Shown here one piece after another: positions 4,845 to 42,561 of a stretch of DNA of 64,000 bases; within the stretch, counting starts at the first letter, position 1; each line of letters starts with the position of its first letter. The position numbers were made by a program, and so were the translations under genes. Origin of the DNA: an uncultured Flavobacteriaceae bacterium (GTDB taxonomy: Bacteria > Bacteroidota > Bacteroidia > Flavobacteriales > Flavobacteriaceae). Below the pieces are notes generated by a model. It was not told the DNA's origin and did no database searches. It saw only the letters and a list, made by a program, of their open reading frames with translations. Where the stretch lies: assembly GCA_938073895.1 (NCBI GenBank), contig CALJFB010000003.1, positions 1-64,000 on the forward strand. The letters run 5' to 3'.

Positions 4845-6119
4845 ATGGAAATATTTCAAATTATTAAGAGAGATTACGAAACGAGTAACTTTGTTCTAAA
4901 CAAAATTACTAATGCTATTGAGAAAGCCATGCAATCTGTAGGTGTTGGAACACGTAATGATGCAGAAGACATTTCGGGTAACGTATATAATAAGTTGCTT
5001 CAGCAAAAAAACAATGAGTTAAATTATACGCCTACCGTAGAACAAGTTCAAGATATTGTTGAAGAGCAATTAATGGAAAGTTCTTTTCCTAATGTTGCCA
5101 AAGCTTACATTCTTTACAGAAATGAGCAAGCAAGAAGAAGAAAGACCGATGTTTTTGAAAAACGAATTAATTTTAAACCTTTTGAGTATCCACAATTATA
5201 CGAATATGTAAATGCAATAAGACACTCGTATTGGATTCATACAGAATTTAATTACACGAGCGATATTCAAGATTTTAAAACAGGATTAAATGAGGTAGAA
5301 AAAAGCGCAATTAAAAACGCTATGTTGGCTATTTCTCAAATTGAGGTTGCTGTAAAAACATTTTGGGGAGATGTTGTTCATAAAATGCCAAAGCCAGAAA
5401 TTGGTGCGGTTGGAGCTACTTTTTCTGAAAGTGAAGTAAGACATCACGATGCTTATTCACATTTATTAGAAGTTCTTGGTCTTAATAGTGAGTTTAAAGA
5501 GTTAAAGAAAAAACCTGTAATGATGGAACGTGTCCATTATTTAGAAACAGCTTTAAGAAATTCTAAGAGTGACGATAATCAAGATTATTCTGAGTCTATT
5601 GTTTTGTTCTCATTATTTATAGAACACGTATCTTTATTTTCTCAGTTTTTAATTATTATGGCTTTTAATAAGCATAAAAATGTATTAAAAGGAATTTCTA
5701 ATGTTGTAGAAGCAACATCTAAAGAAGAGCAAATCCATGGTGATTTTGGTATAGATCTTATTAAAATTTTAAGAGACGAAAAACCAGAATGGTTTGGAAC
5801 TGAATATAAGAAGGTAACTACAGAAATGTCTATAAAAGCTTTTGAGTCTGAAAGCAAAATTGTAGACTGGATTTTTGAAAAAGGAGAATTAGATTTCTTA
5901 CCTAAAAATGTGGTAAAAGAATTCTTAAAAAATCGTTTTAATAGATCTTTAGTAAGTATTGGGCTAGACGCTATTTTTCCAGTAGACGAGGTTTTACTTA
6001 AAGAAACAGAATGGTTTGACGATGAAATTATTGGAACCAAACATGGCGATTTCTTTGTTAAAAGATCAATAGCATACACAAAAAGAAGCAAAAGTATAAC
6101 TTACGAAGACCTATTTTAA
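4845..6119 (+). CDS. nrdB: Ribonucleotide reductase small subunit with N-terminal ATP-cone
   Basis: 424 residues. Residues 1-100 form an ATP-cone domain, a module normally found on NrdA. The ferritin-like radical-generating domain follows with all six metal ligands at expected spacing: E167, E197, H200, E260, E295, H298. The canonical tyrosine position is occupied (Y204), and the C-terminus has the Tyr-Glu-Asp-Leu-Phe tail that docks to NrdA. This matches the group studied in Leeuwenhoekiella blandensis and Flavobacterium johnsoniae, where the subunit uses a dimanganese cofactor and ATP/dATP binding on NrdB controls oligomerisation. The cofactor here is inferred by similarity. nrdA begins 2 nt after the stop, so the subunits are cotranscribed. 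Confidence 0.95.
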   Translation: MEIFQIIKRDYETSNFVLNKITNAIEKAMQSVGVGTRNDAEDISGNVYNKLLQQKNNELNYTPTVEQVQDIVEEQLMESSFPNVAKAYILYRNEQARRRKTDVFEKRINFKPFEYPQLYEYVNAIRHSYWIHTEFNYTSDIQDFKTGLNEVEKSAIKNAMLAISQIEVAVKTFWGDVVHKMPKPEIGAVGATFSESEVRHHDAYSHLLEVLGLNSEFKELKKKPVMMERVHYLETALRNSKSDDNQDYSESIVLFSLFIEHVSLFSQFLIIMAFNKHKNVLKGISNVVEATSKEEQIHGDFGIDLIKILRDEKPEWFGTEYKKVTTEMSIKAFESESKIVDWIFEKGELDFLPKNVVKEFLKNRFNRSLVSIGLDAIFPVDEVLLKETEWFDDEIIGTKHGDFFVKRSIAYTKRSKSITYEDLF

Positions 6120-6121
6120 TT

Positions 6122-7894
6122 ATGAGCGAGCAAACCCTAACCAACCAAAATGCAGACGTTTTAAAAACTGATGATCTTGTACAAGCAAGAAAAAAAGTTT
6201 TACAAAATAATAACCAGCCAGAAATTGAATGGTTAACAGAAAACAGTCGTAAGTTTTTAGAATCTGGATATTTAACAGATGGCATATCTCCAGAACAACG
6301 TATTAGAGATATAGCAGAAAATGCAGAACGTATATTAAAAATAGATGGCTATGCCGATAAGTTCTATAAATATATGGCGGCAGGTTATTACTCATTAGCT
6401 TCTCCAGTATGGTCTAATTTTGGAAAGCAAAGAGGTTTGCCTATTAGTTGTTTTGGTTCTCATATTGCAGACGATATGGGAGATATCTTGTACTCTCAAT
6501 CTGAAGTAGGGATGATGTCTAAATTAGGCGGTGGAACATCTGGTTACTTTGGTAAATTAAGACATAGAGGCGCGCCAGTAAAAAATAATGGTAAATCTTC
6601 TGGATCGGTTCATATCATGCAATTATTTGAAAAAATGGTTGATGTTGTAAGTCAAGGTTCTGTTAGAAGAGGTCGTTTTTCACCATATTTACCAATAGAT
6701 CATCCAGATATTAATGAGTTCTTAGAAATAGGAACAGAAGGAAATCCAATCCAAGAATTAACTCATGGAGTTACTGTAGGAAACAAATGGATGGAAGAAA
6801 TGCGCGATGGCGATGTAGAAAAACGTAAAGTTTGGGCTAGAGTATTACAATCAAGATCTGAAATAGGATATCCATATATATTATTTAGAGACAATGCAAA
6901 CAATAACGCTGCAGATGTTTACAAAGATAAAAACATGGAGATTTATGCAAGTAACTTGTGTACAGAAATCATGTTGCCTTCAAACGATGATTGGTCTTTT
7001 GTTTGCTGTTTATCATCTATAAATTTATTGCATTACGATAAGTGGAAAGACACAGATGCTGTAGAAACACTTACCTATTTCTTAGATGCTGTAATGGAAG
7101 AGTTCATAACAAAGTTAGATGATTATAAAAACTCTAATGACCGTGACGATATTCTTACATTTAAGTTCATGGAAAAAGCCTATAATTTTGCAAAAGAAAA
7201 TAGAGCATTAGGTTTAGGAGCATTAGGTTGGCATTCATTATTACAATCTAAAATGTTATCTTTTGATAGCAAAGAGGCTTTCGATTTAAATTATGAAATA
7301 TTTAAATGTATTAAAGATAAATCATACAAAGCATCTGAAGAATTAGCTAAATTATACGGCGAGCCAAAAGTATTAAAAGGTTACGGAAGACGTAATACCA
7401 CATTAAACGCTATTGCACCAACAACATCATCTGCGTTTATTTTAGGGCAAGTATCTCAAGGTATTGAGCCAATATGGTCTAATATTTACGTAAAAGACAT
7501 TGCTAAAATTAAAACAACTATTAAAAACCCATTCTTAGAGAGTCTTTTAGAAGAGAAAGGAAAGAATACAGTAGATGTTTGGAGAAGTATTCGAGATATG
7601 GATGGATCTGTACAGCATTTAGATTTCTTTACAGAACAAGAAAAGAATGTGTTTAAAACGTATCCAGAGATAGATCAATTAGATGTAGTGTATCAAGCTG
7701 CAAGTAGACAAACTTTTATAGATCAAGGTCAATCTATTAACGTTATGGTTCATCCAGATATGCCAACAAAAGATTTAAATAACATATATGTTACAGCTTG
7801 GCAAATGGGAATAAAATCAATGTATTACCAACACAGTATGAATGCAGCACAAAAATTTAAACAAAAGAAAGAATGTACTAGTTGCGAAGGATAA
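6122..7894 (+). CDS. nrdA: Ribonucleotide reductase catalytic subunit lacking ATP-cone
   Basis: 590 residues, well short of the roughly 760 of E. coli NrdA because the N-terminal ATP-cone is absent. Catalytic features are present: the LPISCFG cysteine, the finger-loop NLCTE motif (Asn, Cys, Glu), the second redox cysteine in FVCCLSS, and a C-terminal CTSC pair that re-reduces the active site. Together with NrdB it makes deoxyribonucleotides from ribonucleotides. Overall activity control must reside on the ATP-cone of the upstream NrdB. A hairpin terminator follows at 7950-7976. Confidence 0.95.
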   Translation: MSEQTLTNQNADVLKTDDLVQARKKVLQNNNQPEIEWLTENSRKFLESGYLTDGISPEQRIRDIAENAERILKIDGYADKFYKYMAAGYYSLASPVWSNFGKQRGLPISCFGSHIADDMGDILYSQSEVGMMSKLGGGTSGYFGKLRHRGAPVKNNGKSSGSVHIMQLFEKMVDVVSQGSVRRGRFSPYLPIDHPDINEFLEIGTEGNPIQELTHGVTVGNKWMEEMRDGDVEKRKVWARVLQSRSEIGYPYILFRDNANNNAADVYKDKNMEIYASNLCTEIMLPSNDDWSFVCCLSSINLLHYDKWKDTDAVETLTYFLDAVMEEFITKLDDYKNSNDRDDILTFKFMEKAYNFAKENRALGLGALGWHSLLQSKMLSFDSKEAFDLNYEIFKCIKDKSYKASEELAKLYGEPKVLKGYGRRNTTLNAIAPTTSSAFILGQVSQGIEPIWSNIYVKDIAKIKTTIKNPFLESLLEEKGKNTVDVWRSIRDMDGSVQHLDFFTEQEKNVFKTYPEIDQLDVVYQAASRQTFIDQGQSINVMVHPDMPTKDLNNIYVTAWQMGIKSMYYQHSMNAAQKFKQKKECTSCEG

Positions 7895-28971: not shown

Positions 28972-29661
28972 TTAAGCAATATGCTTTTTGTAGTAAGTTA
29001 ATAAAGTGTTTGGAGAAGCGCCAAACCATTTTTTTACGTAAATAGTCCAGAAGTGGTATTGTAGTTTCCAAATGCCATGACGTTCGTACAAACGTGCTGA
29101 GGTTGTAATGTTTTTTTGAATTACGGTAAACTCTTTACGCGCATAAAGTTCGTTAATAAGTATATTATCTTCGTAAATAATATAAGATTCGTTAAAACCA
29201 CCAATGTCTTTAAAAAGATTTTTGCATATAAACTGACTTTGATCGCCGCCTCTACAAGCACGCCAAGAAAATTGAGTTAACCAACTTGCTAAACGAAGCC
29301 ACCAATGGTTATTGTCAAATTTTAAACGGAAACAACCAGCTAAATTGTTTTTATGATATTCTTTAATAATTAAAGCATCATAACGGTTTGGAGGAAAAGA
29401 ATCTGCGTGTAAAAAGTATAAAATGGCACCATTTGCAATTTTAGCACCAGTATTCATTTGTTTTGCTCTTCCTTTTTCTGAAGTAATTAATTTTATGTTT
29501 AAGCCTAAATTGCATACAATATCTTGCGTGCCATCTGTACTTCCGCCATCTACTACAATAATTTCGGTGAGATTCTCTAAAGAGGCATTATCTATTAGAT
29601 GATTTAGTAGATCTTCAATAGTTTTTGCTTCGTTTAATACAGGAATTATAATGCTTATCAT
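28972..29661 (-). CDS. Family 2 glycosyltransferase, arsenosugar-associated (TIGR04283-like)
   Basis: 229 residues. GT-A fold with SIIIPVLNEAKTI, VVDGGSTDGT and FLHADSFPP, and a CRGGDQSQF segment near 140. These match the transferase family found with radical SAM ArsS genes and annotated as arsenosugar biosynthesis glycosyltransferase. No C-terminal helix domain. It is the last gene of the 13-gene minus-strand run that begins with the AhpD-like gene at 42561. Its acceptor is not proven. Confidence 0.82.
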   Translation of the reverse strand: MISIIIPVLNEAKTIEDLLNHLIDNASLENLTEIIVVDGGSTDGTQDIVCNLGLNIKLITSEKGRAKQMNTGAKIANGAILYFLHADSFPPNRYDALIIKEYHKNNLAGCFRLKFDNNHWWLRLASWLTQFSWRACRGGDQSQFICKNLFKDIGGFNESYIIYEDNILINELYARKEFTVIQKNITTSARLYERHGIWKLQYHFWTIYVKKWFGASPNTLLTYYKKHIA

Positions 29662-29706: not shown

Positions 29707-30558
29707 TTATTTTATATCGTTTAAATTCCAATCGTAATTTTTGTAATTAACTTTTGTATTGGTATTTATTTTAGTTTTACTATAGGTATTAATGTAGTCT
29801 ATAAGGCTTCCGTTTTGTGTGAAATCGTTTTTGTACCATTTAAAAATTTCAGAAATTTTAATGCTATCTGCACTAATTTTATTTTTATTGTCATTGTTTA
29901 TAAACCCAATTGTTGCTTCTTCCATTAAAGCCATAACATTATCTTTAGTGTAAGCTTTATTTAATAGTTTTGGGCAACCAATAGAAGCGCAGTTTATAGC
30001 AAAATGAATTCTTGGCTCGTTCATTTTACGTAAAATACCATTTTCAATGTCGGCTAAAGAGTAATTTTCTATTCCAATTTTAATACGGTTTTTTGACCAA
30101 GGATTACTAATGTCTTTTATGCTTTTTGTTGGGTAATTATCTACAATTAACTTAATGGTATTTGCGTTATAAACATTAATAAAATAAGCAAGTTGATCTT
30201 GAATAGTCCATTTTTCTGTAGGGATTTGCGTTGCTAAATAGTTAACGTAAATGTTTAATGTGTTTATTTCAGATTTAAAACCTTTATAATCTACATTTCC
30301 GTTATCTTTAACATATTTCTGTAATAAATTATGCAAAGAAGAATGATCTATATTTATAGTGTTTCTAGTTGCTGCTTTTGTATTTTCTGTAACAGTTTTA
30401 GAAACCGATTCTTTTAACGTTTCTAGATTTTCTTCTAATTGATTAGTTTCGGTGTTATTGGTTGTAATTTCGGTTTTTACACTTTTTAAAGGTAATCCTT
30501 TTGCAGAAAAACAGCTGCTTAACATTAATGCTAAAATGGTAACTAAGATGTATTTCAT
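29707..30558 (-). CDS. DUF547 lipoprotein
   Basis: 283 residues. A lipoprotein signal (LMLSSC, Cys about residue 16) is followed by a Thr/Glu/Asn-rich linker of about 50 residues and a DUF547 domain: LAYFINVYNANTIKLIV, the FAINCASIGCPKL block, and KWYKNDFTQNG. A paralogue without the linker lies at 21933-22634. It sits between the sterol-desaturase-like gene (72 nt) and the TIGR04283-like gene (45 nt) in the arsenosugar-type operon. Activity unknown. Confidence 0.85.
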   Translation of the reverse strand: MKYILVTILALMLSSCFSAKGLPLKSVKTEITTNNTETNQLEENLETLKESVSKTVTENTKAATRNTINIDHSSLHNLLQKYVKDNGNVDYKGFKSEINTLNIYVNYLATQIPTEKWTIQDQLAYFINVYNANTIKLIVDNYPTKSIKDISNPWSKNRIKIGIENYSLADIENGILRKMNEPRIHFAINCASIGCPKLLNKAYTKDNVMALMEEATIGFINNDNKNKISADSIKISEIFKWYKNDFTQNGSLIDYINTYSKTKINTNTKVNYKNYDWNLNDIK

Positions 30559-30630: not shown

Positions 30631-31524
30631 TTAAGGTTTCTTTTTAAATGTAATAGGATATAATTCTTGACTTATAAAATCTTTAGGAAAATTCTCGTCG
30701 TTTGTAAAACCCAATTCAATATCTTTTCCGCTATAAGGTATGTAGTTTGTTTTAAAAATATAGTCCCAAACGCTAAGTGTTATTCCAAAATTCATTCCTT
30801 TAGGTAAATGGTTTGGAAGTTGTTTAGCATGATGCCAAATATGCATTTTTGGATTGTTAAAAAGATATTTAAAAACTCCATAATCCCAGCCTAAATTGGC
30901 ATGATTTATATGTCCAATAATTATGGTAAAAAAGTGGATTATTGCCACATCTTTTGCTGTAAAGCCACCAATTATAGCTAATGGAATATATAAAAAACTT
31001 TTGTAGACTACAGGTTCCATCCAATGGTAGCGTAAATGTGCAGCAAATCCCATTTGTTTTACACTATGGTGTACTTTATGAAAATTCCATAAAAATGGTA
31101 CGCGATGTAGCACATTATGAGTTGTCCATTGTACAAAATCGCTTACTATAAAAAAGATAAATAAACCCCAGAATTTTGGGAATGTAGAGATATCTATAAG
31201 CTGAAAATCTATTAAATTAAAACCAAAAAGACCTAAAGCAGCCTCGAAAAATTGAGCTGTTGCATTAGATAATGCTATAAGAATAATTAGATTTAATAGA
31301 AAAAAATTGAAGAACATATAAAATGTATCTAACCAAAAGTCTTTTCTAAAAACAGGTTGGTTTTTTCGCCATGGAAATGCCAGTTCTAACAAGAAAGTAA
31401 CAACAGAAATTAGAATTAATCCATAGAAATAGTTGTTCCAATTGGAATTAAAAAGAATTTGATTTTTAAGGTAATTCCAATAACCAGTATAAGAGTTTTC
31501 TATAATAGTAATTAGTTGTTCCAT
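30631..31524 (-). CDS. Sterol desaturase / fatty acid hydroxylase superfamily membrane protein
   Basis: 297 residues, four or more membrane helices, and the eight-histidine di-iron signature: H136xxxH140, H149xxHH153, and H228xxHH232, plus histidines near 205-208. Members oxidise lipids with O2 or cleave alkylglycerol ethers. The substrate here is unknown. Its position inside the ArsS operon, 48 nt after the purine-nucleoside phosphorylase, could point to a lipid-linked product, but that is a guess. Confidence 0.88.
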   Translation of the reverse strand: MEQLITIIENSYTGYWNYLKNQILFNSNWNNYFYGLILISVVTFLLELAFPWRKNQPVFRKDFWLDTFYMFFNFFLLNLIILIALSNATAQFFEAALGLFGFNLIDFQLIDISTFPKFWGLFIFFIVSDFVQWTTHNVLHRVPFLWNFHKVHHSVKQMGFAAHLRYHWMEPVVYKSFLYIPLAIIGGFTAKDVAIIHFFTIIIGHINHANLGWDYGVFKYLFNNPKMHIWHHAKQLPNHLPKGMNFGITLSVWDYIFKTNYIPYSGKDIELGFTNDENFPKDFISQELYPITFKKKP

Positions 31525-31572: not shown

Positions 31573-32385
31573 TTACAGCTGTTTAATTAATGCTTTAAAA
31601 AGTGTAATCATTTCTGGTTCTGCTTTGGTTGCCATAGCAATAATTTCAGAAATATCTACAGGTTGTAAGTTATTTGGGTCACATTCGTCTGTTAAAACAG
31701 AAATTGCAGCAACATTTAATTTTAATTGATTGGCAACAATAATTTCTGGAACAGTACTCATTCCAACAGCATCTGCACCAAGAATTTTAAGCATTCTGTA
31801 TTCTGCACGAGTTTCTAATTGTGGTCCAAAAACACTAGCATAAACGCCTTCGTGTAAATTAATGTTATTTGCTTTTGCAATAGCTTTAAATTTAGTATTA
31901 ATATCTAAGCTATATGGTGCGCTCATATCTACAAAACGTTCTCCAAATTCTTCGACACCTTTAAAGGCTAATGGCGAGTTTCCTTGTAAATTAATATGGT
32001 CTTCAATAAGCATTAATTCGCCTTTTTTAAAGTCTAAATTAACAGCGCCAGAAGCGTTAGAAACTAGCAGCGTTTTAATTCCAAGTTCTGCCATAACACG
32101 AACTGGATAAGTTACATCTTGAAGCGTATAACCTTCGTATAAATGAAAACGACCTTGCATTACAATTACGGTTTTGCCTTCTAATTTTCCGTAAATTAAT
32201 TTTCCCTTATGAAACTCTACAGTTGCAGTAGGAAAATTAGGAATATGGTTATAACTTACTTCTTGAATTATTTCAATTTCGTTTGTTAATTGGCCTAAAC
32301 CTGTTCCTAAAATTATTCCTATTTCTGGAGATTCAAATCCTTTTTCTTTTAAATATTGTGTGGTTTGTTGTATGTATTTTTTCAT
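31573..32385 (-). CDS. Purine-nucleoside phosphorylase, trimeric type
   Basis: 270 residues. Family motifs: ILGTGLG phosphate loop, QGRFHLYEGY, SNASGAVN, EGVYASVFGPQLET with E191 (human E201), and GMSTVPE. At the base-specificity position, human N243, this protein has D233 (VLTDEC). In the human enzyme Asn to Asp at this place favours adenosine. The gene overlaps the DUF2064 gene by 4 nt within the ArsS operon, which suggests it removes adenine from a 5'-arsenical deoxyadenosine made by ArsS rather than acting only in general salvage. Confidence 0.88.
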   Translation of the reverse strand: MKKYIQQTTQYLKEKGFESPEIGIILGTGLGQLTNEIEIIQEVSYNHIPNFPTATVEFHKGKLIYGKLEGKTVIVMQGRFHLYEGYTLQDVTYPVRVMAELGIKTLLVSNASGAVNLDFKKGELMLIEDHINLQGNSPLAFKGVEEFGERFVDMSAPYSLDINTKFKAIAKANNINLHEGVYASVFGPQLETRAEYRMLKILGADAVGMSTVPEIIVANQLKLNVAAISVLTDECDPNNLQPVDISEIIAMATKAEPEMITLFKALIKQL

Positions 32386-32984
32386 TTGTAAAAATGTTCT
32401 AATTCTTTATAAGGTTTAAGGTCTTCAAACGTGTCAATATCGTTTAAAGATTTAGTTAAATATACATTGTAGTTTTTTAAGTCTTTGGTGGTACTTTTAA
32501 AAACGGTTTCTGTTCCCCAATTTTTATTTGTAAATACATTTGGAATTACTTTTTTCATTCCAAAAAGATAATAACCGCCATCTAATGCAGGTCCTAAAAC
32601 AGCATCGTGTGTATCTAATTTAGTAAAAGCTTCGTTAATATATTTTTGGTCTAAATCGTATAAATCGCTACCAATAATAATCACTTTTTTGTGTCCTAAA
32701 TTAAATAATTCCTGAAAAGCATTTTGCATTCTTAGTCCTAAATCTTCTCCAAATTGTTGTTTTTTGTTGAAGAATTTTTCATTCCAAATGTCGTTTTCTC
32801 TAACTTTAACAGAGTAATATGCATAGCGAGAAGCTTCTATTTTTTTGGCCACATTTGCAGTATGCTGCAATAAAAATTTATAAACATTTAAAGCGGCTTG
32901 ATCTCCAATAGTTTTGGCTAAACGTGTTTTACATTTGCCTAATTCTGGATTCCTTGTAAAAATTATAAGTGCATTATTACTCAT
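32382..32984 (-). CDS. DUF2064 transferase-like protein, arsenosugar-associated (TIGR04282-like)
   Basis: 200 residues. Nucleotidyltransferase-like GT-A fold with N-terminal RNPELGKCKTRLA (residues 11-23), IGSDLYDL, and LGPALDGGYYLFG. This is the DUF2064/TIGR04282 pattern seen beside ArsS genes. It may transfer a sugar or nucleotidyl group to the arsenosugar intermediate; biochemistry for the family is limited. It overlaps the rhodanese gene by 8 nt and the phosphorylase gene by 4 nt. Confidence 0.85.
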   Translation of the reverse strand: MSNNALIIFTRNPELGKCKTRLAKTIGDQAALNVYKFLLQHTANVAKKIEASRYAYYSVKVRENDIWNEKFFNKKQQFGEDLGLRMQNAFQELFNLGHKKVIIIGSDLYDLDQKYINEAFTKLDTHDAVLGPALDGGYYLFGMKKVIPNVFTNKNWGTETVFKSTTKDLKNYNVYLTKSLNDIDTFEDLKPYKELEHFYK

Positions 32985-33489
32985 TAGGTTCTACTTTTGG
33001 GACATAAGAAATACCTTTTTTTAGCCATTTACTCCAAGCTTTAGAAAAGGCATGGACGCTATCGGTTTCTTTTTTATTGTTGTTATAGACATTAAAATTA
33101 GTATTCTTCCATTTAAAAATTCCGCCATAAAGATTTTTAACATTGGTGTAGCCTGCAGTTTTAAGTTTATTGGCAATGGTTTCGCTTCTAATTCCTAAAG
33201 AGCAATACACCACAATAGCGTTGTCTTTATTTGGAATAGTATTTAAAACTGTTTCCAATTTAAAGGTATTGTAACCTACATAAATAGCGTTTTTTAAATG
33301 GCTTATATTGTATTCTTCAATTTCGCGAGCATCTAATAAAATGGCATTTGTTTTAGGCATAGCTAATTCCTCTACAGAAATATAAGGCACGTTATTAGTG
33401 TTATATTTTTTAAGTAGTTTATCAAGGTTTTTTTGTGAAAAACCTATTGTTACTGTAAAAAGTGCTAAAAATGTAAGTGTTAACTTCAT
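32977..33489 (-). CDS. Secreted single-domain rhodanese
   Basis: 170 residues with a signal peptide ending near GFSQ (residue 19). One rhodanese domain with the active-site cysteine in VVYCSLGIRSE (near 111) and the conserved DAREIEEY. Rhodaneses carry sulfane sulfur on the cysteine. An exported member in an ArsS operon could handle thiol- or thio-arsenical chemistry in the periplasm, but this is inference. It overlaps both neighbours (4 and 8 nt). Confidence 0.85.
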   Translation of the reverse strand: MKLTLTFLALFTVTIGFSQKNLDKLLKKYNTNNVPYISVEELAMPKTNAILLDAREIEEYNISHLKNAIYVGYNTFKLETVLNTIPNKDNAIVVYCSLGIRSETIANKLKTAGYTNVKNLYGGIFKWKNTNFNVYNNNKKETDSVHAFSKAWSKWLKKGISYVPKVEPNE

Positions 33490-34313
33490 AATACAATTTC
33501 CAAACCTTCACGCTTTGTTTCTTCTTCAGGAAGAATTTCTGTGTTATCCCAAATTCCATTTATTATGGTTTGTGCGTAAGCTTTGGGTAAATTATTTTTA
33601 AGCATTAGTTTATTAGCCTCAAGATAATCATATTTTAAAGTATAATGGTTGCATATTAACGCTTCGTTAACTATTTCTAAAGTAGCGTACCACACATTTG
33701 GAGTGCCATCATTAGCAGGCATTCCAATAACACCAGGATTAATCCATGTTAGATTTTTTTTAGTATCTGTAAAAGGTAAGCCGCAATGTCCAGCAATAAT
33801 TGTAGTGCAATTTAAAGCTTTAAAGTTAGGCGATTTTAATTGCCAAGATGTAGATTTAAATATAAATTCTGATATGTTAGTGTATGATCCATGAATTACA
33901 GAAATAGAATGTTCTCCTAATTGAAATGATATATGATCTGGTATAGTTTTTAAATAATCTATAGATGATTTTGATAAATGTCCTTTTGCAAATGGATACC
34001 ATAATTTTGAAAACCCATCGCATCTTGAGCCTTTTGTAAAGTCGCAACCACAATCGTCTTCATCATTAATTAATTGCAGTTCTACATTTCCTAAAATAGA
34101 TTTAGCATTCCATCTTTTGAACGTGGAAATAGTTTCTTCTGGTTGCGCGCAATAACCAATTAAATCGCCTGTTGATATGCAATTACTTGCAGGGATGTTT
34201 AAATCTTTAGCTGCGTTTATTAACGCATTAAGCGCTTGGAGATTGCTGTAAACACCTCCAAAAATTAAGACTTTACCGTCTAATTTACCTAATTGTTCTA
34301 TTTTTTTATCCAT
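33486..34313 (-). CDS. Metallophosphoesterase-fold protein with degenerate metal site
   Basis: 275 residues aligned with calcineurin-like phosphoesterases. Several ligands are changed: the GDxH block reads FGGVYSN (G20 for Asp, Y22 for His), GNHD reads GNVE (V77 for His) and GHxH reads GHCG (G178 for His). D50, N76, H141 and H176 remain. An insertion near 86-100 adds three cysteines (C88, C90, C98). Phosphatase activity is therefore doubtful. It may be a binding or regulatory protein. It overlaps the symporter gene by 16 nt and the rhodanese gene by 4 nt. Confidence 0.75.
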   Translation of the reverse strand: MDKKIEQLGKLDGKVLIFGGVYSNLQALNALINAAKDLNIPASNCISTGDLIGYCAQPEETISTFKRWNAKSILGNVELQLINDEDDCGCDFTKGSRCDGFSKLWYPFAKGHLSKSSIDYLKTIPDHISFQLGEHSISVIHGSYTNISEFIFKSTSWQLKSPNFKALNCTTIIAGHCGLPFTDTKKNLTWINPGVIGMPANDGTPNVWYATLEIVNEALICNHYTLKYDYLEANKLMLKNNLPKAYAQTIINGIWDNTEILPEEETKREGLEIVL

Positions 34314-35632
34314 TTTGGTACAATATATAAAATGCAGCAGCTTAAAATTCCCCAGACATTAATCCAAAGTAAATTGGCGTATTTTCCAGAGGTTAAAATT
34401 AAGGCTTTTGGAAACATATTAAAAACTAAAAAGAAGCCAAATATAATACCACAGCAAACACTTAAATAAAAACTTATTCTTGGTGTTTTTAGTTTCCAAA
34501 AAATAAAAATTGGCGTTAAACCAATAACCATAGTTCCAGAAATTGTGGTGGCAGAAAGTATTTCGGCATTTAAAAACACAGGAATTGTTCCTAAAATAAC
34601 TAAAAGTACCATTGCCCAACGACCAAAAGAAATGGTTTTTCCTAATTTTAAATCGATAACCAATAATTTTGAAAACGATGAAAACGTAGAGTCCAAGGTG
34701 GATGCTGCCGATGTTATCATTATAAAATTAATAACCAATAATATAATAACACCAAAAGCTTTTCCAACTTCTACAGCAGCTTGACCTTTAAAGCCTTGTT
34801 TTTGAGCATAAATTCCAATAATACTAAAAAGTACAATACAAATTGCTCCTAAAACACTTGCTAATAAAAAACTTTTTCGAGTTACTTTTGGCGAACTTAT
34901 AAAACCACGATCTGTTAAAACTGGATCGTGAAACGGATAACTAAACGATTGTATTATTGCAGCAAAGAATAAATTAAGACCTAACTCGAAACTCCATATT
35001 CCAGAACTTGTAACATCGGAAACACTAAACGATTCTTCTGTAAATAACTGCAATAAAATTACAATTAGTAGTATGCTAAATAAAACCATTTGTATAACAT
35101 CTGTAAAAATAGAACTACTTAATCCACCTTTAAGTGCATAAGCTAAAGTAAGTAGTGTAAATACAATTATAGACCAATAATAAGCCAATGTGCCTGTAGC
35201 ACCAAAGTAAGATCCAATAACCATTGTATTGCTCCAAACTTCATTAAACAATCTAAAAATTATTAAAATTGAAAACAAAATAACCGCATTTTTTCCGAAT
35301 TTTGATTGAAGAAAATGATGAATACTTTTAAATCCACCTTTTGTTCTTAGGTTGTAAATTATTAGTCCTGCAACAGCAAAACTTAAATAGTAAGCAGCAT
35401 AAGATACGCCACCAACTAAGCCATAAGCCAAACCTAAATTTGCGGCATTAGTAATACTTTTGGCAAAAATCCAAGAAATAATTAAGCTACCAGTTAGCAC
35501 CAATACATTTGGTGCTTTTTTATTGGAAGTTGCTTTATAAAACTGATTCGTCGTTTTTGCAAAAGGCGATAAAAAAAACAATAGTGTACTTGAAGCAATT
35601 ACTAAAATCCATTGCCAATGTATAGTTTCCAT
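34298..35632 (-). CDS. Sodium:solute symporter family transporter
   Basis: 444 residues, about 12 to 13 membrane helices, resembling the SSS family (LAYGLVGGVSYAAYYLSF, later DSTFSSFSKLLVIDL near 315-330, the SSS Na2-site region). The substrate is not predictable from sequence. It follows SusC/SusD by 43 nt and precedes the phosphoesterase-like gene with a 16-nt overlap. This gives the operon both outer- and inner-membrane uptake components. Confidence 0.82.
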   Translation of the reverse strand: METIHWQWILVIASSTLLFFLSPFAKTTNQFYKATSNKKAPNVLVLTGSLIISWIFAKSITNAANLGLAYGLVGGVSYAAYYLSFAVAGLIIYNLRTKGGFKSIHHFLQSKFGKNAVILFSILIIFRLFNEVWSNTMVIGSYFGATGTLAYYWSIIVFTLLTLAYALKGGLSSSIFTDVIQMVLFSILLIVILLQLFTEESFSVSDVTSSGIWSFELGLNLFFAAIIQSFSYPFHDPVLTDRGFISSPKVTRKSFLLASVLGAICIVLFSIIGIYAQKQGFKGQAAVEVGKAFGVIILLVINFIMITSAASTLDSTFSSFSKLLVIDLKLGKTISFGRWAMVLLVILGTIPVFLNAEILSATTISGTMVIGLTPIFIFWKLKTPRISFYLSVCCGIIFGFFLVFNMFPKALILTSGKYANLLWINVWGILSCCILYIVPKWIKK

Positions 35633-35675
35633 TTTATTTAATATTAAACGTCTTTGTTTTAGATTTATTTATTAT

Positions 35676-37115
35676 TTATTCATTCCACCAAACTGGTGCA
35701 TTTATACTGTTGTTATTTGTTGCTGCAGCTGCTTGATTATAATTTGCGGCATTTAAAGCAGATTCTTCATCTGGATAAGGCATTCTAATTGGAATTAAAT
35801 TGTTGTTTAAACTGGCTTGAATTGTTTTTAGCTCAGGAAAACTTGTGCGTCTGTATTCTGTCCAACCTTCGTAACCATTAATCATGTTAGCAATCCATTT
35901 TTGGGTTATAATTTGTTCTAATGGCGAAGTTCCTGTTGCATTAAAAGCAGCGTTTCCTGTTAAATAATTTGTTGGAATTGTAGTTTGCCAATAGTTAAAA
36001 GCTTGTGTTACGCCAGTTTCGTATAAATCTTGTGCATTTGCTATAATATATCCTTTTTGAGCAGCTTCGGCTAGAAACAAAGCTGTTTCCCATGCTGTAG
36101 CATAATTTGCATCTAAAACCGATGTGTCTTCTCTAAAAGCAGTTCCTGCTAAAGAGTAATTTGCTACACTTATACTTGTTCCAGAAGCATCTAGACCATT
36201 TAATAATCCGTTGTATTCTAATGTTGTACTGTTTTCAAAAGGTCTAAAGTAGAATTCTAATCGGTTATCCGAGTAATTGTTTAGAATATCTTCCATAGTT
36301 TCAGACATTACAAAATTGGTGAAATCACCAATTCGTAATTGTGCCAATCTAAAACTGTTTGGATCTGTGTTTGTAAAGTTAAAAACTGCATTTTCAGTAT
36401 TTGAGGTAATGTAATTTCCTTCGGCAAAAATAGTTTGTAAGTTAGAAGAAACATCCATTTTGTTAGAAATACGCATTAGGTATTTAATTTTAAGTGAATT
36501 GGCAAATTTTACCCAAGACGCTAAGTTTCCGTTATATAAAATATCGCCTTCCAAAGGTTGTACGCCAGTATAATTCTCGATTGCGGAAATACCTTTTTCA
36601 AGATTATCTAAAATTCCGCCTTCATCTAAATAAATAGATTGTTGCGCGTTGTATGCTGGAGTTGCAGTTCCATTTACACCATTAAAAGCTTCTGTATAAG
36701 GCACGTTTCCAAATAAATCTGTTAATCCTGCAGTTATATATGCTTTTAGAATTAAAGATGGACCTTTGTAAACATTATTTGCTAAGATAGTTTTAGCCGA
36801 TTTTAATAGAATTTCGTTATCTCTTAAGTTGGTGTAAAATATTGGCCAAGGATTTCCGCCTAATTGTGGCGATTTTAAATCGTGACGACCAAAATTATTA
36901 AAATCTAATGCGGTTCTGTATTGCCCCAATAAATCTCCAGCCACAAAACCTTCGTAACTCATTTGTTCCCCAAAATTGTAAATAACTTGACGTAATAGTA
37001 AGTTAGGTTGCGCAGTAATTGGCGCATTAGAATTAGTGTTTATCTCTTCGAAATCTTTTGTGCAACTTGTAATTAGAAGCATAAAAAAACTAAAAATATA
37101 TAGTGTATTTTTCAT
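35676..37115 (-). CDS. SusD/RagB family outer-membrane lipoprotein
   Basis: 479 residues. Lipobox ITSC (Cys about residue 18) is followed by the common CTKDFEEINTNSNAP start. The fold is the SusD-like family 2 type (TPR helices, with QKWIANMINGYEGWTEYRRT near 410). Such proteins bind solutes at the cell surface for the SusC partner. The SusC gene lies 39 nt upstream. The ligand is unknown: there is no glycoside hydrolase in this operon, and the neighbours are arsenosugar-type genes. Confidence 0.9.
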   Translation of the reverse strand: MKNTLYIFSFFMLLITSCTKDFEEINTNSNAPITAQPNLLLRQVIYNFGEQMSYEGFVAGDLLGQYRTALDFNNFGRHDLKSPQLGGNPWPIFYTNLRDNEILLKSAKTILANNVYKGPSLILKAYITAGLTDLFGNVPYTEAFNGVNGTATPAYNAQQSIYLDEGGILDNLEKGISAIENYTGVQPLEGDILYNGNLASWVKFANSLKIKYLMRISNKMDVSSNLQTIFAEGNYITSNTENAVFNFTNTDPNSFRLAQLRIGDFTNFVMSETMEDILNNYSDNRLEFYFRPFENSTTLEYNGLLNGLDASGTSISVANYSLAGTAFREDTSVLDANYATAWETALFLAEAAQKGYIIANAQDLYETGVTQAFNYWQTTIPTNYLTGNAAFNATGTSPLEQIITQKWIANMINGYEGWTEYRRTSFPELKTIQASLNNNLIPIRMPYPDEESALNAANYNQAAAATNNNSINAPVWWNE

Positions 37116-37154
37116 TATTACTGTATTTTTTATTTCCGCAAAACAGAAATGTTA

Positions 37155-40100
37155 TTAGAAATTAAAACTTGCTTTTAAACCAAGACTTCTAGACGATGCA
37201 TAACTCATATCTTCCACACCACTTACAAATCCGTTGCCTTGAACTGCTAATTGTTCTGGATCAAAATGTGGGTTTTCTGTAATTACAAATAAGTTGTTTC
37301 CAATAATTGAAAAGTTAGCAGAAAGTCCTTCTTTTAATCCTAAAAATCCATCTTTAAACTCTAAATTGTAACCAATAGAAAACTGGCGTAATTTTAAATA
37401 AGACGCATCGTAAACATTGTTTTCTTCGTGATTTCTATCGTAAAACTGTCTGTAATACGTTTCGGCAGGAATGGCAACTGTATTTGCTAAACCTGTGTTT
37501 TGATTTACACCTTGTGCAACAATTCCTGCATCTGGTCTGTATGCTGTCTCGGCTAATTGTCCGCCAACATTTCCTAAAGCTCTTGTTCTTGATACAATTT
37601 CGCCACCTTGACGCCAATCTAATAAGAAGCCTAAATTCCAGTTTTTGTAACTAAAGTTGTTGTTAAAACCTAAAGTAAAATCTGGATTATAGTTTCCAAT
37701 TTTTCGTAATTCATTATCGGCAATAAATTTTCCGTCGTCTGTTAGTAAGAAATCGCCATTGGCATTTTTCTTGTAACCAGTTCCGTAAATATCTCCAATC
37801 TGTCCGCCTTCTTCTACCTGAAACCAAACAGTTTGATTGGCAGAATCGTAAATTCTACTATAAGCTAACGTTAAACGGCCATCGTTTTGAGGTAAACTTT
37901 TTATAGTTGATTTATTTGTGGCAAAATTAAACGTTGCATTCCAAGTAAAATTAGAAGTCTTAATAGGCGTAATTCCTAAAATAATTTCTACACCTTCAGA
38001 ATTTACTTCTCCACCATTTATAACTTGTTGGTTATATCCAGAAGAAATAGGAATTGGTAGCGAAATAATTTGATCCTTTGTAGTTGCATTATAGTAGGTG
38101 TAATCTATGCGAAGTCTATCTTTAAAGAACCTAAAATCGAAACCAGTTTCAAAAGATGTGGTACTTTCTGGTTTAAGGTTAGAATTAGATATAAAGTTTT
38201 GATCGCTTAAAGTTGGCTGGCCATTTACTGGCGTTTGAGACACAAAAGCACCAGAAGTTTGGTACGCATTAGTATCGTTTCCAACTTGTGCTACACTTGC
38301 TCTAATTTTAGCAAACGAAATTACTTCTGGTAATTTAAATACATTTGAAGCTACAAAACTTGTAGAAACCGATGGATAGAAAAATGATGTGCCATCTACA
38401 GAAAATGGCGTTGCTAAAGCGCTAGACCAATCGTTTCGACCTGTAATATCTAAGAAAATAAAATCTTTATAGCCAAATTTTGCTAATCCATAAAATGAAT
38501 TAATACGCTTTTCAGATTCGTACTGGTAACTTTCTAAAGGCGAAGCCGCATTATTTAAATTGTAAATTCCTGGCTGCGCTAAATTAACGGTTTGCACTTG
38601 TTTTGTTGAGGCATATTGGTTAAAACGATTTCCTCCAATAGAAAAATCAACTGTAAAATTGCCATATGCATTTCTATAATTTAATAAAAAATCTGTGTTA
38701 ACTTCTCTGTAAACTACATCGTGTTCTGCGTATGCACCATTTTTAAAACGATTAGAACTGTAAGCTCTTCTCATTTTTCTGGTCTCGTTACTATAGTCCA
38801 TTCCAGTTCTTAAAGTTGCACTAAAATGTTCTGTAAATTTATTTTTTATGGCAATGTTTCCAAAAATACGATCGCGATTAAACGAGTTTCTATTTTCGTA
38901 TAAGGTGAAGAATGGATTATCGAAAAACGTATAGTTAAAAGAATATTGCTGTTTGTTTTGTAATCCTGGTTGCCAGTAATCTCTTAAGCTATTAATGTTT
39001 AAAGATCTTGGACCCCAAGCTACTAAAGAATAATTTGCGTTTTCGCTTCCATAACCATTAGAAGGTCTATTATTGCTTGATGAATTAGTGTAGCTAAGAC
39101 TAGAGGTAACTGTGGTTTTGTTTGTAGGTTTAAATGTAAGGTTTGAGCTAACGGTTTGTCTATCTAAATTTACACCAGGAATAATAGATTCGCTTCTTAA
39201 ATCTGTAAACGAAATGCGGTAGTTACCTTTGTTAAAGGCATTAGAAAGTGCAATATTATTTATGGTTGTAACTCCAGTTTGATAAAAATCTTTAAGATTG
39301 TCTGGATTAGATTTAAATAGTGTTGGAGAAATAGTCTCACCAAAATATAGACTTGTATCTCCACCACGAACAATTGATCCATTAGGCAAAATTACAGGAC
39401 TATCAAATTGTGGAATATAAATGCCTGCATCTAAACTTGGACCCCAAGAATAAGATATATTATCGTTTGTTCCGCCACCTAAGCCATTTACATATTCAAA
39501 TTGCCCTGAGTTTCCTTGACCATAAGAATTTTGAAAATCGGGTAATCTAAACGCATTTTCCATAAAAACCGATGTATTTATAGAAACACCTAAACCTTTA
39601 GTTTTAGAGCCATCTTTAGTTTTTATAACAATTACACCATTAGCAGCACGCGTTCCGTATAATGCAGCAGCACTTGGACCTTTTAAAACGGTTACATTTT
39701 CAATATCGTCTGCATTAACTTCCATAGCGCCATTTCCAAAATCTATTTCTTGGAAACCTGCAGCAGCTTCATTTGTATTATTAAAGACAGTATTGTTGTT
39801 AATAGGAATTCCATCAACAATAAATAAAGGATTGTTGTTAGAAAAAGACGCTTCACCTCTAATAGTAATTTTAGACGATGATCCAACACCAGTAGCACCT
39901 TGAGAAATTGTAACTCCTGCAAATTTACCAGCTAAGTTATCTAGGAAATTTACGGTTTTTACTTCGGTTAATTGTTTAGCTCCAACGGTTTGTACTGCAT
40001 AACCTAGCTCTTTGGATTTACGCTCTAAACCTAATGCTGTAATAACAACTTCGTTTAGGCTTGTAGTGTCGTCTTCTAATAGAATGGTTAATTTTTTTAG

Positions 40101-40346
40101 GTCTTTAATAGTAATGTTTAAGGTTTTAAAACCTACTGAGGAAATGGTTAAAATAGTTGCTGTTTTTGCTTCAATTTTAAAGTTTCCATTATCGTCGCTT
40201 ATAGTATTTTTACCATTATTTGCCTGGATTGTAGAATAGGGAATTGGTAATCCATCTGTTTTAGACGAAATATTACCAGTAATAGTTTGTTGTGCAAAAC
40301 CTGTTGCGCAAAGCAATAGTAATGCAAGCATATAAAAATGCTTCAT
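37155..40346 (-). CDS. SusC/RagA family TonB-dependent outer-membrane transporter
   Basis: 1063 residues. Signal peptide ends near GFAQ. A carboxypeptidase-regulatory-like beta domain lies at 20-100, then the TonB-box region (NEVVITALG), the plug with LKGPSAAALYGTRAANGVI near 223-241 (SusC signature), and a 22-strand barrel ending in KASFNF. It imports a solute bound by the SusD partner in a TonB-dependent way. The upstream neighbour is the second DUF2064 gene, 62 nt away. An imperfect inverted repeat (CTGA/TCAG) sits at 40363-40376 in that gap. Confidence 0.92.
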   Translation of the reverse strand: MKHFYMLALLLLCATGFAQQTITGNISSKTDGLPIPYSTIQANNGKNTISDDNGNFKIEAKTATILTISSVGFKTLNITIKDLKKLTILLEDDTTSLNEVVITALGLERKSKELGYAVQTVGAKQLTEVKTVNFLDNLAGKFAGVTISQGATGVGSSSKITIRGEASFSNNNPLFIVDGIPINNNTVFNNTNEAAAGFQEIDFGNGAMEVNADDIENVTVLKGPSAAALYGTRAANGVIVIKTKDGSKTKGLGVSINTSVFMENAFRLPDFQNSYGQGNSGQFEYVNGLGGGTNDNISYSWGPSLDAGIYIPQFDSPVILPNGSIVRGGDTSLYFGETISPTLFKSNPDNLKDFYQTGVTTINNIALSNAFNKGNYRISFTDLRSESIIPGVNLDRQTVSSNLTFKPTNKTTVTSSLSYTNSSSNNRPSNGYGSENANYSLVAWGPRSLNINSLRDYWQPGLQNKQQYSFNYTFFDNPFFTLYENRNSFNRDRIFGNIAIKNKFTEHFSATLRTGMDYSNETRKMRRAYSSNRFKNGAYAEHDVVYREVNTDFLLNYRNAYGNFTVDFSIGGNRFNQYASTKQVQTVNLAQPGIYNLNNAASPLESYQYESEKRINSFYGLAKFGYKDFIFLDITGRNDWSSALATPFSVDGTSFFYPSVSTSFVASNVFKLPEVISFAKIRASVAQVGNDTNAYQTSGAFVSQTPVNGQPTLSDQNFISNSNLKPESTTSFETGFDFRFFKDRLRIDYTYYNATTKDQIISLPIPISSGYNQQVINGGEVNSEGVEIILGITPIKTSNFTWNATFNFATNKSTIKSLPQNDGRLTLAYSRIYDSANQTVWFQVEEGGQIGDIYGTGYKKNANGDFLLTDDGKFIADNELRKIGNYNPDFTLGFNNNFSYKNWNLGFLLDWRQGGEIVSRTRALGNVGGQLAETAYRPDAGIVAQGVNQNTGLANTVAIPAETYYRQFYDRNHEENNVYDASYLKLRQFSIGYNLEFKDGFLGLKEGLSANFSIIGNNLFVITENPHFDPEQLAVQGNGFVSGVEDMSYASSRSLGLKASFNF

Positions 40347-40408: not shown

Positions 40409-41083
40409 TTAAAGTAGAGTAGGCGAGCCTTTATTAAAATTAACACCATCAGTAAAGTGCTTAACAGCTAAAGAATATTGCGTGAAATGATTGACGATTT
40501 TATTTAAAATAGCAACAATTAAACGTCTTGTAATATGATGAATAAATTTGTAGCTATTTAAGAAATAATATAAATCCTTTTTTGTGTTAATGTCTTTAAG
40601 TAACTCTAAACGAATTTCGGTTTTAAGAGTTTTAAAATGCTTTAAAAATGCCTTTTGAATGGTGTTTGTTTGCCAAGCTAAATTTTTAAAATTGTTGTAA
40701 TTAAAATCGGCTTTATTTAATCCTAATAAATAAAAACCACCATTTTTAGATGGTCCTAAAACGAATTTATTGGCTTTTAAATTCTGATTTGCTTTAAGTA
40801 AATGAGAAACTTTAAGCTGAGGTGAATCGTTTCCAATAGAGATTACATTATTAAAACCTTTATTGTAAATGCTTTGTATGGCATTAGCAAAACGTTCTCC
40901 AAAAGAGTTTCCAATCTGCTGATTTTCGTTAATTATAAAATACGGTAAGTTGGAACGCTTGGCCTTTTTAATGACTAAGTTGTTCAGGTTTTTGAAAAGT
41001 TCTTCAGATTTATGAAACCCTTTATTTTGAGCTTCTTTAGTTGAAGAATTTGCAAAAATTAATATGGCCGTATGTTGTGTCAT
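40409..41083 (-). CDS. Divergent DUF2064 protein
   Basis: 224 residues. It keeps the core IGNDSPQL and LGPSKNGGFYLLGL blocks of DUF2064, but the N-terminal KTRL loop seen in the paralogue at 32382-32984 is replaced (ANSSTKEAQNKGFHKS). A C-terminal extension of about 45 residues (IHHITRRLIVAILN region) is unique to this copy. It follows ArsS by 18 nt. The lost N-terminal motif suggests altered or absent nucleotide binding. Confidence 0.75.
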   Translation of the reverse strand: MTQHTAILIFANSSTKEAQNKGFHKSEELFKNLNNLVIKKAKRSNLPYFIINENQQIGNSFGERFANAIQSIYNKGFNNVISIGNDSPQLKVSHLLKANQNLKANKFVLGPSKNGGFYLLGLNKADFNYNNFKNLAWQTNTIQKAFLKHFKTLKTEIRLELLKDINTKKDLYYFLNSYKFIHHITRRLIVAILNKIVNHFTQYSLAVKHFTDGVNFNKGSPTLL

Positions 41084-41101: not shown

Positions 41102-42157
41102 TTACGCAACAGTACCTTGGCAACTGCTTCCTGCTCCAGCAGTACAACCGTAGCAGTGTTGAGATATTACTATATTTCTTCCTTCTAGAAGTTCTTCGTT
41201 GTATTGGCTAATATGTTTGGCTTTGCTATTAACAGGTAATTCTAACATTTGATTAAAATCGCAATCAAATAAATAGCCATCCCAACTTATAGAAAGTGTG
41301 TTTGTACACATTACGTTCTCTACAGCTGCAGGATTATAAGCATCTACTAAAGCGTACATATAATCTTCGTAATTTTCTGAAGCTATTAAATAATCTAAGA
41401 AACGTGCAATTGGTAGGTTTGTAATAGCAAAAAGATTGTGAAATTGAATGTTAAAATCTTCTTTTAAAGCCTTTTTAAAATCCTTTTCCATAGCAACTTG
41501 GTCTCCAGGTAAAAATGCACCAGATGGATTGTAAACTAGGTCTAAACGTAAATCGCTATCAGGCATTCCATAACCACGCGCATTTAATTCTTGAAGTGCT
41601 TTAATTGATTTGTCAAAAACACCATTACCACGTTGTTTATCTGTTTTTCCTTTAGTCCAATGTGGCATAGAACTTACAACGTGTACATTGTGTTTTTTAA
41701 AGAAATCGGGTAAGTCGTAATATTTTTTATTAGCTCTAATTATGGTAAGGTTAGAACGTACAATAAAGTCTTTAATTCCTGCTTTAGAGGCTTCTTCTAC
41801 AAACCATCTAAAAAGCGGATTCATTTCTGGAGCGCCGCCAGTTAAGTCTAATGTGTGCGCACCTGTATTTTTTATAACTTCTATGCATTGTAGCATAGTT
41901 TCTTTAGTCATAATTTCTTTACGATCTGGACCAGCATCTACATGGCAATGCTCGCAAACTTGATTACACATATAACCAACGTTAATTTGTAGAATTTCTA
42001 GTTTTTTGGCTTTTAAAGGAAATTGATTTGTTTTAGAAATTTTTGATTTAAAAGTTTCTAATTCACCATTAGCAAATATGCCTCCAGATAGAATTTCGAG
42101 TTGTTTGTTAGATTGCGCTAAATCGCTATGCCTTTTTTGTAATGAAGTTTGTGCCAT
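41102..42157 (-). CDS. arsS: Arsenosugar biosynthesis radical SAM protein ArsS
   Basis: 351 residues from the ATG at 42157, which gives the usual start MAQTSLQKRHSDL; an in-frame upstream start at 42199 is less likely. The radical SAM motif C64xxxC68xxC71 reads CNQVCEHC, and the Gly-rich SAM loop is DLTGGAPEMN. The C-terminal Cys-rich stretch CYGCTAGAGSSCQG is typical of ArsS. The family attaches a 5'-deoxyadenosyl group to a methylated arsenical, giving the precursor of arsenosugars. No arsM methyltransferase is in this window. The AhpD-like gene is 71 nt upstream. Confidence 0.88.
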   Translation of the reverse strand: MAQTSLQKRHSDLAQSNKQLEILSGGIFANGELETFKSKISKTNQFPLKAKKLEILQINVGYMCNQVCEHCHVDAGPDRKEIMTKETMLQCIEVIKNTGAHTLDLTGGAPEMNPLFRWFVEEASKAGIKDFIVRSNLTIIRANKKYYDLPDFFKKHNVHVVSSMPHWTKGKTDKQRGNGVFDKSIKALQELNARGYGMPDSDLRLDLVYNPSGAFLPGDQVAMEKDFKKALKEDFNIQFHNLFAITNLPIARFLDYLIASENYEDYMYALVDAYNPAAVENVMCTNTLSISWDGYLFDCDFNQMLELPVNSKAKHISQYNEELLEGRNIVISQHCYGCTAGAGSSCQGTVA

Positions 42158-42228
42158 AAATATATTATCTAAGTCTAGTTTGTCGAGATATCTATACAAA
42201 CTTACGATATAAATTAAAAAACGGTTTT

Positions 42229-42561
42229 CTATAGATCTAGTTTGTTTACTTTATTCATCATTTGTACACCATGAACTAAAGTTGCTCCACTTTTAATTGC
42301 TGCGCCTACGTGTAAGGCTTCCATCATTTCTTCTTTGGTAATGCCGCGTTGTAAGCCATCTTTTGTGTAGGCATCTATACAATACGGGCATTGTTCTGTG
42401 TGTGCAACTGCTAGTGCTATTAAAGATTTTTCTCTTGCTGTAAGTTTTCCTTCTTTAAAAACTTCGGAGTAATAATCAAAAAATTTAGTTCCAAGTGTTT
42501 CGTTCCAGTCAGAAATTTTCCCAAATTTTCTTAAGTCTTTATCGTCGTAGTAATTACTCAT
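42229..42561 (-). CDS. Arsenosugar-associated AhpD/carboxymuconolactone-decarboxylase-like peroxidase
   Basis: 110 residues. The AhpD-type motif C58PYC61 with H54 and the following DAYTKDGLQRG block is the redox site of this family, which is usually found next to arsS. It is the first gene of the 13-gene run, so its upstream region should hold the operon promoter. It may protect ArsS or reduce an arsenical, but activity has not been shown. Confidence 0.82.
   Translation of the reverse strand: MSNYYDDKDLRKFGKISDWNETLGTKFFDYYSEVFKEGKLTAREKSLIALAVAHTEQCPYCIDAYTKDGLQRGITKEEMMEALHVGAAIKSGATLVHGVQMMNKVNKLDL

What the first reader, a model, noticed from the sequence alone, without database searches (positions are those of the whole stretch)
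31573..32385. PNP with Asp at the base-specificity position, suited to adenine nucleosides
D233 replaces the Asn that in human PNP (N243) selects 6-oxopurines; the human Asn-to-Asp change favours adenosine. The gene overlaps the DUF2064 gene by 4 nt in the ArsS operon. ArsS produces an adenine-containing nucleoside, so a phosphorylase that accepts adenine would release the sugar moiety for the next step.
Basis: partly seen in the sequence, partly recalled or inferred. Interest (0 to 1): 0.6.

Follow-up and report, generated by a model that had tools for sequence, protein, structure and literature searches.

The report
Purine phosphorylase of Bacteroidota arsenosugar operon
A bacterium carries, inside its gene cluster for making arsenic-containing sugars, a purine phosphorylase that travels with that cluster between genomes and whose sugar-binding pocket is altered exactly where the arsenic group would sit, making it a strong candidate for the unknown enzyme that removes adenine from the arsenic nucleoside.

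Summary
The gene is real: a 270-aa purine nucleoside phosphorylase (PNP) on the minus strand, with Asp233 where human PNP has Asn243 and a 4-nt overlap with the upstream TIGR04282 gene. It does fit an adenine substrate: the same swap in a yeast PNP makes adenosine the best substrate.

The proposed role is nevertheless strengthened by other evidence. In 55 of 66 ArsS+ Flavobacteriaceae genomes this PNP lies within 10 kb of ArsS, usually between TIGR04282 and arsenosugar-type ArsM. In a genus that includes Flavobacterium, where the ordinary PNP is a different paralogue, all 15 ArsS+ genomes carry this PNP beside ArsS and none of 45 ArsS- genomes does. What separates the paralogues is the sugar pocket: the residue equivalent to human His257, which binds the 5'-hydroxyl, is Ile/Leu in the cluster-linked copy and His in the other copy of 21 two-PNP genomes. 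The 5' carbon is where ArsS attaches arsenic. Best reading: a phosphorylase for 5'-dimethylarsinoyl-5'-deoxyadenosine. No activity has been measured.

The parts
31573..32385 (-). Purine nucleoside phosphorylase, type B (D233 = human N243; E191 = E201; L190 = F200; I245 = H257; I248 = V260)
32382..32984 (-). TIGR04282 'arsenosugar biosynthesis glycosyltransferase' (DUF2064, CofC-like), keeps the KTRLA motif; overlaps PNP by 4 nt
   Evidence: adjacent to PNP in 64/66 ArsS+ Flavobacteriaceae genomes
32977..33489 (-). rhodanese-domain protein (NF045521, rhodanese near glycosyltransferase)
   Evidence: conserved neighbour
33486..34313 (-). calcineurin-like metallophosphoesterase
34298..35632 (-). 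sodium/solute symporter-like protein
   Evidence: 36.9 bits, below the TIGR00813 cut-off
35676..37115 (-). SusD-like outer-membrane lipoprotein (by position after SusC; no NCBIfam hit)
   Evidence: inference from pairing with SusC
37155..40346 (-). SusC/RagA TonB-linked outer-membrane protein
   Evidence: TIGR04056, 586 bits
40409..41083 (-). second, divergent TIGR04282-like protein lacking the N-terminal KTRLA motif, below the family cut-off
41102..42199 (-). ArsS, arsenosugar biosynthesis radical SAM protein
   Evidence: TIGR04167, 438 bits, cut-off 300
42229..42561 (-). AhpD-like arsenosugar-associated peroxidase-like protein (TIGR04169)
30631..31524 (-). fatty-acid hydroxylase superfamily protein, in the slot where ArsM sits in most relatives
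29707..30558 (-). DUF547 protein, conserved in the cluster
28972..29661 (-). TIGR04283 arsenosugar biosynthesis glycosyltransferase (GT2-like)
   Evidence: 237 bits, cut-off 182

Best explanation
The gene encodes a trimeric-class PNP that works in the arsenosugar pathway as a 5'-substituted-adenosine phosphorylase. ArsS makes 5'-dimethylarsinoyl-5'-deoxyadenosine (known chemistry). This enzyme is proposed to swap adenine for phosphate, giving 5-dimethylarsinoyl-5-deoxyribose-1-phosphate (alpha). The adjacent CofC-like TIGR04282 protein would then activate that sugar phosphate with a nucleotide, and the GT2-type TIGR04283 protein would transfer it with inversion to glycerol or a lipid head group, giving the beta-riboside found in natural arsenosugars. 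Shown here: family membership, active-site residues, conserved clustering, repeated co-gain with ArsS, paralogue-specific 5' pocket. Inferred: substrate, product and the two following steps. In this genome it is also the only trimeric PNP, so it probably handles ordinary adenosine and inosine too.
For: Within 10 kb of ArsS in 55/66 ArsS+ Flavobacteriaceae genomes, nearly all from different genera, 53 same strand and downstream; preceded by TIGR04282 in 64/66 and followed by arsenosugar ArsM in 47/66, including genomes where ArsS is hundreds of kb away. In a Flavobacterium-containing genus, 15/15 ArsS+ genomes have this PNP beside ArsS, 13 as a second copy, against 0/45 ArsS- genomes; at least 8 separate gains/losses on a tree of the other PNP, ArsS and this PNP always changing together. 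The linkage recurs in Fulvivirga and in Chitinophagaceae/Ferruginibacter with other gene orders. In all 21 two-PNP genomes with both copies readable, the ArsS-linked copy has Ile (one Leu) at human-257 and the other has His. His257 binds the 5'-OH in human PNP (PMC12648331, PMC3214022). Asp is invariant in linked copies and suits adenine (PMC5074518). Natural arsenosugars are beta-ribofuranosides and the arsenic nucleoside occurs in nature (PMC9919133).
Against: No activity data. Type B PNPs with a hydrophobic residue at 257 are widespread in Bacteroidota without ArsS (25 sequences outside the family), and 6 ArsS- Flavobacteriaceae keep type B with none of the cluster, so the pocket did not arise for arsenic. 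No residue separates ArsS+ from ArsS- type B within the family. Two genomes with ArsS, Fibrella and a Saprospiraceae MAG, have no NF006054 PNP at all, and 31 other PNP loci from ArsS+ Bacteroidota are unlinked. This genome has no arsenosugar-type ArsM detected (92.7% complete). Five ArsS-lacking genomes keep the Rhod-TIGR04282-PNP module with DUF547 and/or TIGR04283, so it may have a non-arsenic substrate. Co-gain in Flavobacterium may partly be passive transfer of a linked gene.
Confidence: 0.5

Rival explanations
1. It is a general adenosine/purine PNP kept beside ArsS and ArsM to remove adenosine arising from S-adenosylhomocysteine after arsenic methylation, easing product inhibition; it never touches the arsenic nucleoside.
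For: Asp fits adenosine; direct neighbour of ArsM in 47/66 genomes; sole trimeric PNP in the window genome.
Against: In two-PNP genomes the other copy also has Asp, so adenosine turnover is already covered there; it does not explain the 5'-pocket change. Also present beside ArsS where ArsM is not adjacent.
Confidence: 0.18
2. It salvages 5'-deoxyadenosine released by uncoupled radical-SAM turnover (ArsS or others), preventing inhibition.
For: Loss of the 5'-OH-binding His fits a 5'-deoxy nucleoside; type B also occurs in ArsS- genomes; the only other phosphorylase-superfamily protein found in this genome is uridine-phosphorylase-like, with no MTA/SAH nucleosidase found.
Against: Does not explain specific linkage with TIGR04282 and TIGR04283, nor co-gain with ArsS specifically.
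Confidence: 0.13
3. Ordinary housekeeping PNP that happens to sit in the cluster and is carried along by linkage; no pathway role.
For: Six ArsS- Flavobacteriaceae keep type B alone; outside the family the surveyed ArsS+ genomes have it unlinked.
Against: Repeated retention of a second PNP only with ArsS, in at least three gene orders and several families.
Confidence: 0.14
4. It assists arsenate reduction through arsenolysis of nucleosides, as mammalian PNP does in vitro.
For: Arsenate reduction by PNP with dithiols is reported for mammalian enzymes in vitro (PMC12608789).
Against: In vivo relevance is doubtful even in mammals; would not need a changed 5' pocket or neighbouring TIGR04282/TIGR04283.
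Confidence: 0.03

Closest known systems
Trimeric (low-molecular-mass) PNP, NCBIfam NF006054 / TIGR01697; solved examples 4LNA and human PNP
   Same: Fold family; phosphate and ribose residues H64, R84, H86, Y88, E201, M219 (human numbering) all kept; 302-bit match to 4LNA
   Different: Asn243 is Asp, Phe200 is Leu, His257 is Ile; just below the cut-off of the inosine/guanosine-specific model TIGR01700 (290.5 against 293.35)
S-methyl-5'-thioadenosine phosphorylase (MTAP, TIGR01694)
   Same: Thr-Asp at the base site and hydrophobic residues around the 5' position (human MTAP V233/V236 recalled from memory, not tested here); same superfamily
   Different: Only 92 bits against a cut-off of 275; keeps the PNP Glu201. 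Resembles MTAP in two pocket features, is not a member
Engineered adenosine-active PNPs (K. lactis N256D, human/calf N243D)
   Same: Asn to Asp with the base-binding Glu kept
   Different: Here Asp is natural and lineage-wide, and the 5' pocket differs too
Type A PNP of the same genomes (e.g. L201 in G509, the genome of F. cellulosilyticum)
   Same: Asp at 243, PNP family
   Different: Keeps Phe200 and His257, never near ArsS in the genomes examined

Membership tests
Trimeric PNP (NF006054) | Score above curated cut-off | tested here: met
   346 bits against 218
Trimeric PNP (NF006054) | Phosphate/ribose catalytic residues H64, R84, H86, Y88, E201, M219 | tested here: met
6-oxopurine-specific PNP I (TIGR01700) | Curated cut-off and Asn at position 243 | tested here: not met
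   290.5 against 293.35 bits; Asp at 243
6-oxopurine-specific PNP I (TIGR01700) | His257 for the 5'-hydroxyl | tested here: not met
   Ile245; ungapped against type A His and against 8swu/8swt
MTAP (TIGR01694) | Curated cut-off | tested here: not met
   91.9 against 274.85 bits
Arsenosugar biosynthesis cluster | Contains ArsS (TIGR04167), TIGR04169, TIGR04282 and TIGR04283 in one run | tested here: met
Arsenosugar biosynthesis cluster | Arsenosugar-type ArsM (NF038099) | tested here: not met
   no match in the window or the 92.7%-complete genome
5'-dimethylarsinoyl-5'-deoxyadenosine phosphorylase (proposed) | Phosphorolysis of that nucleoside | not testable with these tools
   needs enzyme assay

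The most novel reading that the evidence does not exclude
A dedicated arsenic-nucleoside phosphorylase: a PNP subfamily with a hydrophobic residue in place of the 5'-hydroxyl-binding His, recruited to release arsenoribose-1-phosphate, followed by nucleotide activation (TIGR04282) and glycosyl transfer (TIGR04283). This would fill in the missing route from the ArsS product to arsenosugars.
Probability: 0.42. Interest if true: 0.8.

Novelty: new variant of a known kind. Interest (0 to 1): 0.6.

Why it matters
Arsenosugars are major arsenic compounds of the sea, and an adenosyl arsenic intermediate has long been proposed and found in nature, yet the step that replaces its adenine has no assigned gene in the open papers searched here. 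This survey gives a specific candidate gene, a residue-level prediction at the 5' pocket, and natural pairs of paralogues in one genome for a clean test.

Tried and rejected
Asp as an ArsS-specific mark: rejected, 144/144 Flavobacteriaceae PNPs have it. Residues separating ArsS+ from ArsS- type B PNPs: none fixed. Another nucleoside-cleaving gene beside ArsS outside Flavobacteriaceae: no PF01048 gene within 15 kb in the surveyed genomes; nine genes from ArsS neighbourhoods, annotated, gave ArsM, redox, racemase, tRNA and lipid genes but no nucleosidase. MTAP membership: rejected. Papers naming a PNP in arsenosugar synthesis: none in the held library; subscription papers could not be searched. 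No structure was predicted: close solved homologues exist and no tool gives residue distances. The paralogue labels '_l' and '_2' printed were provisional and partly wrong; linked copies were taken. The A/B rule printed labelled one type A variant (G357, Tyr200 but His257) as B; counts here use the residue at 257.

Full report
Observation. The finding's coordinates hold a 270-codon ORF on the minus strand. It is a trimeric-class PNP: 346 bits on NF006054 against a cut-off of 218, PF01048 in Pfam, and a 302-bit match to the solved PNP 4LNA. Asp233 is the counterpart of human Asn243, Glu191 of Glu201, Leu190 of Phe200, Ile245 of His257 and Ile248 of Val260. In HMMER's alignments with solved PNPs 8swu and 8swt the Asp and Ile columns fall without gaps opposite Asn/Asp and His; MAFFT shows the same ungapped stretch between the two Flavobacteriaceae paralogues. 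The start codon overlaps the TIGR04282 gene by 4 nt.

Is the Asp special? I sampled genomes, mostly one per genus, for ArsS (TIGR04167) and PNP (NF006054) and read the PNP sequences. In the first set of 161 PNPs, Asp was present in 68/68 from ArsS+ and 18/18 from ArsS- Flavobacteriaceae genomes, and in 60 of 75 elsewhere in the phylum; the Asn cases are mainly a separate second paralogue. With the Flavobacterium-type genomes added, 144/144 Flavobacteriaceae PNPs have Asp, 50 of them from ArsS- genomes. The Asp is a lineage trait. It is still informative: K. lactis PNP N256D prefers adenosine (kcat/KM 2.2e6, wild type undetectable; PMC5074518), and calf/human N243D accept adenosine (PMC6274182).

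Is the link with ArsS real? In 66 ArsS+ Flavobacteriaceae genomes, 55 have the PNP within 10 kb of ArsS, 53 of these downstream on the same strand, most often 0.6-1.5 kb away. With random placement in a 3.5-Mb genome about 0.6% would be expected (my estimate). TIGR04282 directly precedes the PNP in 64 of 66, and the arsenosugar-specific ArsM (NF038099) is the next recognised gene in 47 of 66, also in genomes where ArsS is hundreds of kb away. In the survey outside the family none of 31 PNP loci from ArsS+ genomes was linked, but among 80 named ArsS loci fetched independently the PNP also lies by ArsS in Fulvivirga imtechensis, Chitinophagaceae, Ferruginibacter and unclassified Bacteroidia.

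A natural experiment. The genus of G217 includes Flavobacterium: two of its genomes share contig lengths with F. cellulosilyticum AR-3-4 and F. kayseriense F-47. Its ordinary PNP is a different paralogue (type A: Phe200, His257). Only 15 of 200 genomes have ArsS. All 15 carry a type B PNP beside ArsS, 13 of them in addition to type A; none of 45 ArsS- genomes examined carries type B (32 have one PNP, with His257; 13 have none). Fisher p is about 2e-14 if genomes were independent; they are not, so I also counted on a tree of the type A PNP: at least 8 separate changes, 8 of 8 independent pairs concordant, sign test p 0.008 (the PNP and ArsS labels are identical in these rows). At least three gene orders are seen (ArsS-PNP-ArsM; ArsS-TIGR04282-PNP-ArsM; PNP divergent from DUF547-AhpD-ArsS-ArsM-TIGR04282). 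Passive hitchhiking with ArsS can explain co-gain but less easily the retention of an extra PNP in every arrangement.

What separates the copies. In 14 Flavobacteriaceae and 7 other two-PNP genomes, the ArsS-linked copy reads Leu200/Asp243/Ile (one Leu) 257, and the other Phe or Tyr200/Asp243/His257. An eighth outside genome (G532) has an incomplete second copy with Asn and is not counted. In human PNP His257 binds the 5'-hydroxyl and Phe200 lines the sugar (PMC12648331; PMC3214022). ArsS adenosylates arsenic (PMC12159101), which places the arsenic at the 5' carbon. So the position that differs is the one facing the arsenic group. This pocket is not exclusive to ArsS genomes: type B is common elsewhere in the phylum, so it looks like recruitment of an existing type rather than a new invention. 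A quick FastTree places all linked copies in one clade (local support 0.975) that also holds about 14 members from genomes without ArsS.

Proposed mechanism. PNP chemistry gives the alpha sugar-1-phosphate; TIGR04282 resembles CofC nucleotidyltransferases and could activate it; TIGR04283 is a GT2-like transferase and could transfer it with inversion, giving the beta-ribosides of natural arsenosugars (PMC9919133). These two steps are inference. In the window genome the PNP is the only trimeric PNP and the only other superfamily member found is uridine-phosphorylase-like, so it likely also serves purine salvage.

Limits. Substrates are untested. Two ArsS+ genomes have no such PNP. The window genome shows no arsenosugar ArsM, perhaps from incompleteness or because methylated arsenic is imported. 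Five ArsS-lacking genomes keep much of the TIGR04282-PNP module, so a non-arsenic substrate is possible. Subscription literature could not be searched, so prior publication of this role cannot be excluded.

Noticed in passing
window 33486-40346: A SusC-SusD-symporter-metallophosphoesterase block is inserted inside the ArsS cluster, and the same block adjoins ArsS in other Bacteroidota families (L170, L176) and in several Flavobacterium genomes; it may import arsenicals or arsenosugar precursors.
   Followed up: partly
window 40409-41083: A second, degenerate TIGR04282-like protein lacking the N-terminal KTRLA motif sits right after ArsS; a similar short form follows ArsS in most loci that carry the SusC/D block.
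   Followed up: partly
L065, L077, L079, L113 (Flavobacteriaceae) and L153 (G044): Genomes without ArsS (and, where searched, without arsenosugar ArsM) retain Rhod-TIGR04282-PNP with DUF547 and/or TIGR04283, suggesting either decay or a non-arsenic role of the module.
   Followed up: partly
whole genome G000; window 30631-31524: No arsenosugar-type ArsM (NF038099) found although ArsS and both glycosyltransferase genes are present; a fatty-acid hydroxylase gene occupies the usual ArsM slot.
   Followed up: partly
L097 (G048) 5346-7026: Tandem pair of PNP genes in which one has Asp and the other Asn at the base-specificity position: a natural D/N pair in one genome.
   Followed up: no
Bacteroidota survey: Many non-Flavobacteriaceae genomes pair an Asp-type PNP with a separate Asn-type PNP, hinting at a division of labour between adenine and 6-oxopurine nucleosides.
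   Followed up: no
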